From a virus, in IMG/VR virus record IMGVR_UViG_3300030419_001931, positions 1-30,422 of that record: a stretch of DNA of 30,422 nt, one strand, 5' to 3'. The translations under genes and the position numbers were made by a program. The notes beneath the pieces were generated by a model that worked only from the letters and a program-made list of their open reading frames with translations, was not told the DNA's origin and ran no database searches. Shown piece after piece: positions 2,702 through 4,722 of this stretch (position 1 is its first letter; each line of letters opens with the position of its first letter).

Positions 2702-3368
2702 AAATTGCGGAAGTACACAATTAAAATATATACATGAAATAAATTTACATGAATGTGTCGATTGCGGGTTGCTTGCAGTATCACGAATATTAACTATACG
2801 TGGTAAAAAGACACAAAATCTATTGCCGGGGGCAAATCGTGATTTTGCACCACTTGATATATTATTAAATGAATTTAATTTACAAGAGTATCGTAATGAT
2901 ATTATTAAAAATTATAATACGTTAAAAGTTGCATTAGTATTAAATAGAGTAGATGAGATTACTGCCTTTGCAGCAGTAACTTATTGTACTTTACTACAAA
3001 CAAATGCTGAATATAATATACATAAGATGTGTGCATTCATGGGAGTAAATAAAAATAAAATGTTTAAAGTAAGTAAAAAAATTAATAAACATTTTCGTAG
3101 AGTTGGTATATTAGAAATAGATAAGGAATCGGTCCGGTATGGATGGTGGGTAAATTATCCTGATATAAAAGAATTAACTGACGAAGGTAAAATATTCCTA
3201 GATAGTTTAGGTAATAATTACACTATTACTAGAAGTATCATGGCGGCAGTACTTTATGAATATTCAGATTTGACTCAAGCGCAAGTCTGTTATAAAATGG
3301 GAGTTAGTCTCCCTCGCTTGAAAAGACACTTAACGGTGATTAGAAATGGGAAGAAAGAAGAAGAATAG
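2691..3368 (+). CDS. TFIIB-like transcription initiation factor (viral TFB)
   Basis: TFB bridges TBP at the promoter and RNA polymerase in archaea. Seen, numbered from ATG 2691: an N-terminal zinc ribbon with C3/C6 and C22/C25. After a linker come two alpha-helical repeats. The first, around residues 50-125, includes AFAAVTYCTLLQ and a later helix-turn-helix-like MGVNKNKMFKVSKKI. The second, at about 180-220, includes IMAAVLYEYSDLTQ, then YKMGVSLPRLKRHL. This fits a zinc ribbon plus two cyclin-like folds. At 225 residues it is shorter than the roughly 300 of cellular TFB, mainly in the linker. A TTG at 2682 would add three residues, but ATG 2691 is preferred. It probably redirects host RNA polymerase to virus promoters. 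The family assignment is fairly good; activity is inferred. Confidence 0.75.
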   Translation: MPCENCGSTQLKYIHEINLHECVDCGLLAVSRILTIRGKKTQNLLPGANRDFAPLDILLNEFNLQEYRNDIIKNYNTLKVALVLNRVDEITAFAAVTYCTLLQTNAEYNIHKMCAFMGVNKNKMFKVSKKINKHFRRVGILEIDKESVRYGWWVNYPDIKELTDEGKIFLDSLGNNYTITRSIMAAVLYEYSDLTQAQVCYKMGVSLPRLKRHLTVIRNGKKEEE

Positions 3369-3927
3369 TAAAAGAAAGATTATGATTATAGGAGCAGGTG
3401 GTATTGGTAGTTTCCTAATACCACTATTAGATAAGACGGGATTGTATGAAATTACAGTGTTCGACCCCGATGTAGTCGAGACAAAAAATCTAACATATCA
3501 AAATTTTGATGAAGAAGATGTAGAAAAATATAAGGTTAGTGTTATGGCTGATAGATATAATTCAGTTACAGGACAACCATATAAGGTATTAACTTCAAAA
3601 CAAGTTAAGGGATATGATTTAGTTATATGTTGTGCAGATAACCTAGCAATAAGAAGAACATTATATTCTTCTGATAAAATAAAATGGTTAGACCTAAGAG
3701 CACAAGGTAGAAACGCTGCTATGATTTCTTCATTAGAAAGAGCAGAATTATATTCATCATTTACTGCTGGACCCGATGGTTCTTTTAGTTGCCAAGGAGA
3801 TTCATGGGAAGGAGATACTACTGGTGTTCATTTTATGCAAGTAGTAGCGGCTGGATATGGAGCACAATGGGTTCAAAGATGGTTTAATGGTGAAGATGTA
3901 AAGAAACACGCCACATATAATGGGTGA
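3346..3927 (+). CDS. ThiF/MoeB/E1-like adenylyltransferase
   Basis: E1-like enzymes adenylate the C-terminal glycine of ubiquitin-like or sulfur-carrier proteins. Seen: a basic N-terminus, then the nucleotide-binding loop GAGGIGS (16-22). The acidic strand end VFDPDVVETKNL (38-49) matches the D-x-D-x-V...NL stretch of the family. K63 is at the conserved lysine position and D98 lies in CCADN at the metal/ATP site. The family's NLNRQ reads NLTYQ here, so the arginine that usually contacts ATP is replaced by Tyr51. The usual paired zinc cysteines are missing. C149 in FSCQGD is the only obvious candidate for the catalytic cysteine. At 193 residues it is compact. It overlaps the TFB-like gene by 23 bases. 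A JAMM protease follows after three microprotein genes. Confidence 0.8.
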   Translation: MGRKKKNSKRKIMIIGAGGIGSFLIPLLDKTGLYEITVFDPDVVETKNLTYQNFDEEDVEKYKVSVMADRYNSVTGQPYKVLTSKQVKGYDLVICCADNLAIRRTLYSSDKIKWLDLRAQGRNAAMISSLERAELYSSFTAGPDGSFSCQGDSWEGDTTGVHFMQVVAAGYGAQWVQRWFNGEDVKKHATYNG

Positions 3928-3931
3928 TTAA

Positions 3932-4033
3932 ATGGAAGATAAAAATAGATGCTATGTATGTGGGTTTTATATGTTTATTGATTGGAAAACCAATCAACCC
4001 GAATGCAGTAATTGCGGAGGAATTTCAAGATGA
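3932..4033 (+). CDS. 33-residue zinc-ribbon microprotein
   Basis: This short frame begins MEDKNRCYVCGFYMF and ends CSNCGGISR. The two CxxC knuckles (C7/C10 and C25/C28) are 14 residues apart, as in a minimal zinc ribbon. It starts four bases after the E1-like gene stop, behind GGGTGATTA, a good ribosome site. It ends in an ATGA overlap with the next microprotein. The cysteine spacing, ribosome site and chained overlap support real translation despite the length. The function is unknown. An adaptor for nucleic acid or protein binding is a guess from the fold. Confidence 0.65.
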   Translation: MEDKNRCYVCGFYMFIDWKTNQPECSNCGGISR

Positions 4034-4152
4034 ATAAATATAGACAAACAACACTAGATGAATTTGGGTTTGAATTTTTCGAGGTTCCGAAGGAAATTGT
4101 TTGGAGAGTAAGAGAATTGTTAAGATTAACAAATGTTAAGGAGGAAGAATAA
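4030..4152 (+). CDS. 40-residue microprotein with a PCNA-binding-like motif
   Basis: The N-terminus reads MNKYRQTTLDEFGF. QTTLDEFG resembles the PIP box (Q-x-x-hydrophobic-x-x-aromatic-aromatic) by which proteins dock on PCNA. The last aromatic is replaced by glycine, with phenylalanine one position later. The rest is a probable amphipathic helix (VPKEIVWRVRELLRL) and an acidic KEEE end. It overlaps the genes on both sides by four and one bases, so it is part of the same translational chain. This virus encodes its own PCNA, making a clamp-binding peptide reasonable: either a linker for another factor or a competitor on the host clamp. The role is inferred. Confidence 0.55.
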   Translation: MNKYRQTTLDEFGFEFFEVPKEIVWRVRELLRLTNVKEEE

Positions 4153-4244
4153 TGGCTAAACGTCATTGTACTAAGTGCGGCTACGGTTTAGCACATAATA
4201 AAGGTGAGGATAAATGTCCTCATTGTAAAAAAATATGGAAGTGA
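4152..4244 (+). CDS. 30-residue zinc-ribbon microprotein
   Basis: The frame MAKRHCTKCGYGL...CPHCKKIWK has CxxC pairs at C6/C9 and C22/C25 in a basic background, a minimal zinc ribbon. Translation would start in the TAATG overlap with the preceding microprotein, with GGAGGAAG just upstream as ribosome site. Its last codons, TGG AAG TGA, form the GGAAGTGA ribosome site of the JAMM gene that starts at 4249. The coupling suggests these proteins are made together with the JAMM enzyme. Function unknown. Confidence 0.6.
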   Translation: MAKRHCTKCGYGLAHNKGEDKCPHCKKIWK

Positions 4245-4248
4245 ATAA

Positions 4249-4722
4249 ATGGAAGAATTAGAATATAAGGATAAAGGAATTGTACACCCGACATGTGATT
4301 GGGATTTTTGTAAGGCTTTAATAGATGAAGCCTTTGATTTATGCGAAGGAAGTTTTTATGACCCGTACTTTTTAGATATAATCTGGCAAGTATCAACCGA
4401 ATATCTTACTGAACTAGAGGTAAGTGTAATTGTTGATGCTGACTATAATTTATTTATTAGTAAGGGAACAGGAAGTTTTGTAGATTATAAGAATGAAAGT
4501 GTAAAGGGAATGAAGTTACCTCTTAAGTGTTGGATTCATACCCATCCATTCGGTCATGCTTATTTTAGCGGAACTGATTGGAAAACAATTAATACTCAAA
4601 AACCTATTCTTAAAGAAGCAATCGTACTAGGTAAAAATCAAAGTATGCGTTGGTTTAAGAAAGATGGAGAAGAGTACTTATCGAGGACTGAGGAAATATG
4701 TCTAACGATGGAGGAAGAGTAA
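4249..4722 (+). CDS. JAMM/JAB (MPN+) metalloprotease
   Basis: JAMM enzymes are zinc peptidases that remove ubiquitin-like tags or process ubiquitin-like precursors. Seen: a complete motif H97-x-H99-x7-S107-x2-D110 within IHTHPFGHAYFSGTDW, and an upstream acidic residue in a strand (TELEVSVI, E57 likely) that would be the general base. At 157 residues it is a single minimal domain. The ribosome site is the GGAAGTGA at 4237-4244. It lies about 320 bases after the E1-like gene in the same operon. This E1-plus-JAMM combination is known from cellular ubiquitin-like and sulfur-transfer systems and from some phage tail-assembly loci. No gene in the window is a clear ubiquitin-like partner. The family is confident; the substrate is unknown. 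Confidence 0.85.
   Translation: MEELEYKDKGIVHPTCDWDFCKALIDEAFDLCEGSFYDPYFLDIIWQVSTEYLTELEVSVIVDADYNLFISKGTGSFVDYKNESVKGMKLPLKCWIHTHPFGHAYFSGTDWKTINTQKPILKEAIVLGKNQSMRWFKKDGEEYLSRTEEICLTMEEE

What the first reader, a model, noticed from the sequence alone, without database searches (positions are those of the whole stretch)
3346..4722. Virus-encoded E1-like enzyme and JAMM protease with three microproteins between them
An E1/ThiF-like adenylating enzyme (GAGGIGS, D40, K63 and D98 kept) and a complete JAMM metalloprotease (H97, H99, S107, D110) lie in one tightly coupled operon of an apparently archaeal virus. Only two tiny zinc ribbons and a PIP-like peptide lie between them. Cellular archaea use such pairs for SAMP-type protein tagging and sulfur transfer, and some bacterial antiviral systems use E1 plus JAMM. 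Here no ubiquitin-like gene is visible and the E1 lacks the usual zinc cysteines and the NLNRQ arginine. The pair may act on host ubiquitin-like proteins, on a tail protein, or as an unusual minimal conjugation system.
Basis: partly seen in the sequence, partly recalled or inferred. Interest (0 to 1): 0.8.

Follow-up and report, generated by a model that had tools for sequence, protein, structure and literature searches.

The report
Archaeal virus ubiquitin-like tagging system
Viruses of abundant ocean archaea always carry a paired tag-activating enzyme and tag-cutting protease, and relatives of this virus also carry their own small ubiquitin-like tag, cut off here by the edge of the fragment, so they appear to run a complete protein-tagging system of their own.

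Summary
Window 3346-3927 encodes a ThiF/E1-type adenylating enzyme. Window 4249-4722 encodes a JAMM metalloprotease whose catalytic residues are invariant in 72 relatives. The pair is a fixed feature of these magrovirus-like contigs: 151 of 152 E1 loci with enough flank hold the JAMM. The three microproteins between them are not conserved (1-5 of 59 loci). The main finding lies outside the window. A core-gene comparison of eight near-complete relatives found a 65-73 aa ThiS/SAMP-like protein, about 3-8 kb upstream of E1, ending in an invariant Gly-Gly, in most copies followed by a 1-9 residue tail. All 46 E1 loci with at least 9 kb upstream have it. Starting from it instead, 70 of 70 loci have E1 and 69 of 70 have JAMM, same order and strand. 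This record is cut about 5 kb short of where it should be. A fourth invariant gene (1526-2701) has one invariant cysteine in an E2-like motif and a modelled domain nearest, weakly, to E2/UEV folds. Best reading: a virus-encoded ubiquitin-like modification system in which JAMM trims the tag, E1 activates it, a candidate E2 passes it on, and JAMM can remove it. Targets are unknown; all chemistry is inferred.

The parts
3346..3927 (+). E1-like (ThiF family) adenylating enzyme, 193 aa; GxGGxGS, D40, K63, D98, candidate catalytic C149; invariant Y51 in place of the NLNRQ Arg
   Evidence: Pfam ThiF 1.5e-18; PDB profile hits; invariant residues in 31 relatives; comparison with plasmid and phage E1s
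4249..4722 (+). JAMM/MPN+ metalloprotease, 157 aa; E57, H97, H99, S107, D110
   Evidence: Catalytic residues 100% conserved in 72 relatives; AMSH-like profile hits 9e-5; Prok-JAB 0.0029 for the single sequence, below Pfam's cut-off
1526..2701 (+). Candidate E2-like protein, 391 aa; C-terminal domain (about 232-391) with the only invariant cysteine, C332, in GPICIDN
   Evidence: With E1 and JAMM in 76/76 loci found from this gene alone; C332 invariant in 41/41; AF2 model pLDDT 85; VIA-align rows dominated by UEV/UBC folds, Z at most 5.4. No sequence-profile support
2682..3368 (+). TFB-like gene between the candidate E2 and E1; 59/59 loci. Not claimed as a catalytic part
   Evidence: Iterative profile count; 76/76; N-terminal zinc-ribbon cysteines visible in the sequence; no Pfam TFIIB match
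4698..5084 (+). Conserved zinc-knuckle protein overlapping the 3' end of JAMM; possible accessory factor, fold unassigned
   Evidence: 55/59 loci; AF2 model pLDDT 85 with no significant PDB match

Best explanation
The pair belongs to a virus-encoded ubiquitin-like (SAMP/ThiS-type) protein-modification system. A small viral tag protein, encoded upstream in the same direction and lying just outside this truncated record, is made with Gly-Gly plus, usually, 1-9 extra residues. JAMM removes the extra residues. E1 adenylates the exposed glycine and probably carries the tag as a thioester on C149. The tag is then transferred, perhaps through C332 of the E2-like protein at 1526-2701, to lysines of target proteins early in infection. 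JAMM can also take tags off again. Shown by computation: the genes, the intact catalytic residues, the invariant Gly-Gly, and the strict linkage and order Ubl - candidate E2 - TFB - E1 - JAMM. Inferred: the beta-grasp fold of the tag, trimming, activation, E2 transfer, conjugation rather than sulfur transfer, and the identity of any target.
For: E1 and JAMM families and intact motifs. Linkage: JAMM in 151/152 E1 loci; E1 and JAMM in 76/76 loci found from the 391-aa gene, all in one order and strand; E1 in 70/70 and JAMM in 69/70 loci found from the Ubl; Ubl in 46/46 E1 loci with at least 9 kb upstream. Ubl: found in 8/8 near-complete relatives; Gly-Gly invariant in 44/44 aligned sequences; tail lengths 0-9, with 1-2 residues commonest, and mixed Gly codons that argue against a ribosome-binding-site artefact; HMM-HMM score against archaeal ThiS/MoaD/SAMP proteins 25.4 (P 3e-4), GG in register, against a maximum of 17.4 for 100 column shuffles and 10.7 reversed; single archaeal Ubls up to P 8e-6, also ending at the GG; sub-threshold Pfam ThiS 25-76/76 ending at the GG and NCBIfam thiS/SAMP1. 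Own 3' structure, median z -3.6 against -0.04 after E1. Precedent: the C. subterraneum pro-ubiquitin with a 9-residue tail is cleaved by its JAMM before E1 can use it (PMC5654768).
Against: The Ubl is not in this record; its presence here is inferred from relatives. No structure of the Ubl could be predicted (quota used). Sequence matches to ThiS/SAMP are below curated cut-offs; part of the Ubl resembles the T4 Lon inhibitor Pin about as well by plain HMM (11.4 against 8.5 bits), though without the Gly-Gly. E1 lacks the NLNRQ Arg and an N-terminal extension, so ATP binding must differ from MoeB/ThiF. About 16% of Ubls have no tail to trim (16 of 101). The E2 assignment has no sequence-profile support and only Z at most 5.4. 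No E3, host target or host Ubl was examined. Counts come from overlapping sets of contigs, mostly the closest relatives.
Confidence: 0.72

Rival explanations
1. Sulfur relay. The viral Ubl is a sulfur carrier: E1 adenylates it, it becomes a thiocarboxylate, and it donates sulfur to a tRNA or small molecule. JAMM trims the precursor or releases an adduct, as Mec+ does for CysO.
For: The Ubl's best sub-threshold family matches include ThiS sulfur carriers; ThiF is the best E1 family. In archaea Ubl and E1-like proteins are also tied to sulfur transfer and tRNA modification (PMC2948915).
Against: No rhodanese, cysteine synthase or PP-loop thiolase was recognised among the core genes compared (functions not exhaustively assigned). 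The strict link to a JAMM and to an invariant-cysteine E2-like protein fits conjugation better.
Confidence: 0.17
2. Counter-defence against host SAMP tagging. The proteins act mainly on host tags: JAMM strips host SAMP from viral or host proteins, and E1 and the viral Ubl act as decoys or competitors.
For: Borg elements of Methanoperedens carry many JAMM proteins proposed to be deSAMPylases countering a host SAMP defence; the same paper recalls that bacteria tag phage proteins (PMC12660748).
Against: A decoy would not need an E1 with its core catalytic residues kept, nor a strict set of three to four genes. Host Poseidoniales SAMP genes could not be examined here.
Confidence: 0.15
3. The small Gly-Gly protein is a protease (Lon) inhibitor like T4 Pin and is unrelated to E1/JAMM, which act on a host Ubl.
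For: Pfam PinA matches 10/44 members, best 1.4e-4; T4 Pin scores 11.4 bits against the family HMM.
Against: The match covers only the middle; Pin lacks the invariant C-terminal Gly-Gly; HMM-HMM comparison favours archaeal ThiS/MoaD proteins, end-registered; strict co-occurrence with E1 and JAMM.
Confidence: 0.04
4. JAMM serves tail or capsid maturation, as proposed for lambda-type TAPK, and the E1 is a neighbour by chance.
For: Phage tail JAB proteins with a Ubl-like partner are known (PMC1779556).
Against: The genes lie in the replication module, opposite in strand to the structural genes, and always with E1.
Confidence: 0.02

Closest known systems
Ubiquitylation operon of Candidatus Caldiarchaeum subterraneum (PMC5654768)
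   Same: Pro-Ubl with a short tail after Gly-Gly, E1-like, E2-like (candidate here) and a neighbouring JAMM/Rpn11 protease
   Different: Cellular, with a eukaryote-like ubiquitin, a full E1 and a RING E3; here viral, with a ThiS-like tag, a compact 193-aa E1 lacking the NLNRQ Arg, and no E3 found
Haloarchaeal SAMP system (SAMP, UbaA, HvJAMM1)
   Same: ThiS/MoaD-like Gly-Gly tag, ThiF-type E1, JAMM
   Different: Host genes, not one linked viral set; no E2-like partner known to me; the viral E1 scores far below the UbaA cut-off (34.9 against 450 bits)
PRTRC / E2-D - JAB - ThiF cassettes of plasmids (e.g. Nostoc pC052_E, Marinobacter pMAQU01)
   Same: JAB and ThiF genes side by side in a replication module with an E2-like gene upstream (Nostoc); PRTRC_ThiF is the second-best NCBIfam match
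   Different: NxxRQ motif kept; different E2 and Ubl families (no profile match to the viral 391-aa protein)
crAss-like phage crAss001 gp77 (JAB) and gp76 (ThiF)
   Same: JAMM and E1 genes adjacent in a DNA-phage replication module; NLNRQ Arg also lost
   Different: Longer proteins, remote sequence, no Ubl identified; bacterial host
Borg JAMM deSAMPylase-like proteins (PMC12660748)
   Same: JAMM proteases on archaeal extrachromosomal elements
   Different: Multicopy JAMM, no strictly linked E1 and tag described in the passages read

Membership tests
ThiF/MoeB/E1 superfamily | Rossmann adenylation core: GxGGxGS, ribose-binding Asp, Lys and catalytic Asp | tested here: met
   Pfam ThiF 1.5e-18; residues invariant in 31 sequences
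ThiF/MoeB/E1 superfamily | Arg of the NLNRQ motif | tested here: not met
   Invariant Tyr51 instead; so a divergent E1, not a canonical MoeB/UbaA
ThiF/MoeB/E1 superfamily | Two CxxC zinc-binding pairs (typical of MoeB/ThiF) | tested here: not met
   Only C95, C96, C149 in the sequence
ThiF/MoeB/E1 superfamily | Cysteine that accepts the tag | tested here: met
   C149 invariant and aligned with the cysteine of plasmid E1s; function not tested
JAMM/MPN+ metalloproteases | E ... HxHPx7SxxD | tested here: met
   All five residues 100% conserved in 72 sequences; AMSH profile hits
SAMP/ThiS/MoaD-type Ubl (relatives' upstream gene) | C-terminal Gly-Gly, mature or precursor | tested here: met
   Invariant in 44/44 aligned sequences; codons mixed
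SAMP/ThiS/MoaD-type Ubl (relatives' upstream gene) | Sequence membership at curated cut-off | tested here: not met
   Pfam ThiS best 8.4e-4, thiS/SAMP1 sub-threshold; HMM-HMM P 3e-4
SAMP/ThiS/MoaD-type Ubl (relatives' upstream gene) | Beta-grasp fold | not tested
E2/UBC enzymes (1526-2701) | UBC-like fold | tested here: inconclusive
   AF2 model 232-391; VIA-align top rows UEV/UBC, Z at most 5.4; Foldseek weak
E2/UBC enzymes (1526-2701) | Catalytic Cys in a G-x-[IV]-C-[LIV]-D type motif | tested here: met
   Only invariant Cys, C332 in GPICIDN, 41/41; the E2 consensus itself is from general knowledge
E2/UBC enzymes (1526-2701) | Sequence-profile similarity to UQ_con or Prok-E2 | tested here: not met
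   No Pfam, PDB or HMM-HMM match
PRTRC system | PRTRC ThiF above cut-off, Prok_Ub, ParB, E2-D | tested here: not met
   48.9 bits against a 144.75 cut-off; no Prok_Ub in 31 records
CBASS Cap2/Cap3 or Bil defence | CD-NTase or Bil partner genes with E1/E2/JAB matching PADLOC models over their length | tested here: not met
   Only partial E1-domain matches, no JAMM match; no such partners recognised in the window gene list
Magrovirales-like archaeal tailed viruses | PolB, ligase and TFB replication module opposed to a structural module; 80-100 kb; low GC; marine | tested here: met
   Gene layout and Pfam, relatives mostly of 82-97 kb, ICTV profile of Aoguangviridae; no marker-gene tree was made

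The most novel reading that the evidence does not exclude
A tailed virus of archaea carries a complete, self-contained ubiquitin-like conjugation cascade (precursor tag, trimming and removing JAMM, divergent E1 and a new family of E2) as a core replication-module function, conserved across the whole magrovirus group.
Probability: 0.4. Interest if true: 0.93.

Novelty: new variant of a known kind. Interest (0 to 1): 0.86.

Why it matters
Ubiquitin-like tagging is known in archaeal cells and in bacterial antiviral defence. In the papers searched here I found no report of an archaeal virus carrying the tag, its activator and its protease as core genes. Magroviruses infect Poseidoniales, among the commonest surface-ocean archaea, so the system would be widespread. 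It would turn an open question, whether prokaryotic viruses use protein tagging for their own ends, into a direct test with three or four small proteins. It would also add a divergent E1 and possibly a new E2 family to the comparison set for the origins of ubiquitin signalling.

Tried and rejected
Microproteins as system parts: rejected, 1-5 of 59 loci. The ~80-aa C2H2 proteins ending GG-x (window 7554-7778) as the tag: rejected, GG in only 17 of 29 members and variable position; my idea that those GGs are ribosome-binding sites was also not borne out, as codons are mixed. Standard Ubl families by direct HMM in 31 virus records: none above cut-off (PF02597, PF14454, TIGR01687); the Ubl surfaced only by core-gene comparison. 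Conserved companion 4698-5084 as Ubl or E2: its model gave no significant match and no beta-grasp or UBC row in the lists shown. Methanoperedens L100, an E1 relative at 32%, and its 712-aa upstream gene as a homologue of the candidate E2: a tempting by-eye match, not above shuffled controls; no JAMM of this family beside it. Prokaryotic E2-A/E2-B against the candidate E2: no HMM-HMM match. PDB sequence profiles for the Ubl and candidate E2: none. Magrovirus records in the annotated phage collection: none found.

Full report
What is there. The window is a 30,422-base virus record of 32.7% GC with a replication module on the + strand (ribonucleotide reductase fragment, TFB-like protein, ATP-dependent ligase, family B polymerase, ERCC4 and PD-(D/E)XK nucleases) opposed to a structural module on the - strand. 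Its relatives are contigs from public viral collections, many of 82-97 kb. Layout and size fit the Poseidoniales 'magroviruses' (ICTV profile PMC10768690). I did not make a marker-gene tree.

The E1. The 193-aa protein at 3346-3927 matches ThiF at 1.5e-18, and its profile matches ThiF, MoeB, UBA5, Uba4, Cap2 and MccB structures. Across 31 relatives GxGGxGS, D40, K63, D98 and C149 are invariant, and so is Tyr51, at the place of the NLNRQ arginine. Plasmid E1s keep that Arg; the crAss001 and Xanthomonas jumbo-phage E1s have lost it too. It is therefore a divergent but not a decayed E1.

The JAMM. The 157-aa protein at 4249-4722 scores below Pfam's cut-off alone, but E57, H97, H99, S107 and D110 are 100% conserved in 72 distinct relatives. 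A profile of 44 sequences matches AMSH-type deubiquitinases at about 1e-4.

The pair is obligate. Of 152 E1 loci with at least 4 kb downstream, 151 carry the JAMM; the exception is the Methanoperedens contig L100. Thirty-one of 31 tested records hold both. From the upstream 391-aa gene alone, 76/76 loci have E1 and JAMM in the same order and strand. The microproteins in between occur in only 2, 1 and 5 of 59 non-redundant loci; other lineages have quite different genes there.

The missing tag. Direct HMM searches for ThiS, Prok_Ub and archaeal MoaD found nothing above cut-off in 31 virus records. I then compared all ORFs of eight near-complete records. One core family is a 65-73 aa protein with consensus MxKLRILNETGHTEL...EVIEQIxxHPTHWVFxDGEMVSRExIxxINWDxVxxVDLTPAIVGG. 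Gly-Gly is invariant. Of 101 distinct sequences with the plain motif, 16 end at GG and 85 add 1-9 residues, mostly two. The glycine codons are mixed and a strong stem rather than a next gene usually follows (median z -3.6, against -0.04 after E1), so the GG is not a by-product of a ribosome-binding site.

Is it a Ubl? By HMM-HMM comparison the family aligns over residues 9-67 with archaeal ThiS/MoaD/SAMP proteins, GG to GG, score 25.4 (P 3e-4). One hundred column shuffles reached at most 17.4, reversal gave 10.7, and other virus families at most 22.1. Single archaeal Ubls reached P 8e-6. Pfam ThiS matches 18-64 of one member to 25-76 of 76 positions, below cut-off. The T4 Lon inhibitor Pin matches the middle about as well by plain HMM but lacks the C-terminus. 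I judge Ubl likely; the fold itself was not tested.

Linkage of the tag. The Ubl is present in 46/46 E1 loci with at least 9 kb upstream, 2.6-8.6 kb before E1 on the same strand. Searching from the Ubl instead, 70/70 loci with at least 9.5 kb downstream have the 391-aa protein and E1, and 69/70 the JAMM. In the closest relative (L341; E1 90%, JAMM 97% identical) the order is Ubl 1681-1911, candidate E2 8392, TFB 9608, E1 10245, JAMM 11143. The sets of contigs in these tests overlap and hold mostly the closest relatives, so the counts are not independent of each other.

Candidate E2. The 391-aa protein at 1526-2701 has one invariant cysteine, C332 in G-[PSA]-I-C-[IV]-D-N, in 41/41 sequences, resembling the E2 active-site motif (that resemblance is from general knowledge). 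Its AF2 model (pLDDT 85) has helix, strands, cysteine, helices in E2 order at 232-391. VIA-align's best rows are UEV and UBC domains at Z 4-5.4, which the tool warns is not conclusive. No sequence profile supports it. I give it about even odds.

Mechanism. The anatomy matches the reconstituted archaeal pathway of C. subterraneum, where JAMM must remove a tail from pro-ubiquitin before E1 can use it, and also removes conjugates (PMC5654768). By that analogy the virus trims, activates, transfers and removes its own tag. A sulfur-relay role, which ThiS-type proteins also have, is the main rival. The target is unknown; the position in the replication module suggests early action on replication, transcription or host proteins (inference).

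Known and new. E1-JAMM neighbours exist in plasmid E2-D cassettes, with related PRTRC cassettes, and in crAss001 (gp77-gp76), and JAMM proteins in Borgs (PMC12660748). A magrovirus survey (PMC10160649) mentions none of ThiF, JAB or ubiquitin, and Philosof 2017 was not held. I found no report of a viral archaeal system with tag, activator and protease together; the literature check is limited to open papers.

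Noticed in passing
window 4030-4152: 40-aa microprotein with a PCNA-interacting (PIP-like) motif QTTLDEFGF; in relative L003 it is reduced to little more than the motif (MYRQTTLEEFGFKFYENNKEEE). Only in the closest relatives; may bind host or viral PCNA.
   Followed up: partly
window 5063-5311: Histone-fold protein (Pfam CBFD_NFYB_HMF 7.6e-4, just under cut-off) next to the zinc-knuckle gene; related genes in 38 of 59 loci.
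   Followed up: partly
window 4698-5084: Zinc-knuckle protein conserved beside JAMM (55/59 loci) with a confident model and no significant PDB match.
   Followed up: partly
window 7554-7778: C2H2-type ~75-aa family, present in 29/59 loci at varying places, ending in Gly-Gly plus one residue in about half the members.
   Followed up: partly
L022:7056-7598, L005:2124-2657 and others between E1 and JAMM: About 177-180 aa protein weakly matching pyrimidine dimer DNA glycosylase (Pfam 3.4e-4, below cut-off) inserted between E1 and JAMM in one lineage.
   Followed up: no
G014 (184,733-base IMG/VR record; L143, L232): Record holds two different copies each of E1 and JAMM: probably two virus genomes joined, or a doubled genome.
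   Followed up: no
L097, L098, L099: Magrovirus-like contigs binned into bacterial MAGs (Maricaulis, Altibacter): likely contamination of those genome bins.
   Followed up: no
L100:7905-8492: Methanoperedens contig with the only distant cellular E1 relative found (32%), sharing the Tyr for Arg change and SCQ motif, next to a 712-aa unknown gene and a 166-aa protein ending GKGG; a RadC gene lies some 6 kb away.
   Followed up: partly
L173:3259-5657 (crAss001 gp77-gp76): crAss-like phage carries adjacent JAB (HSHNNMATFFSGTD) and ThiF genes in its replication module, annotated only as metalloprotease and thiamine biosynthesis.
   Followed up: partly
many small genes in the window and relatives: Many of the small proteins, and most JAMMs, end in Glu-Glu-Glu (GAGGAAGA-like codons) just before the next start codon, as if the next gene's ribosome-binding site is written into the C-terminus.
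   Followed up: no
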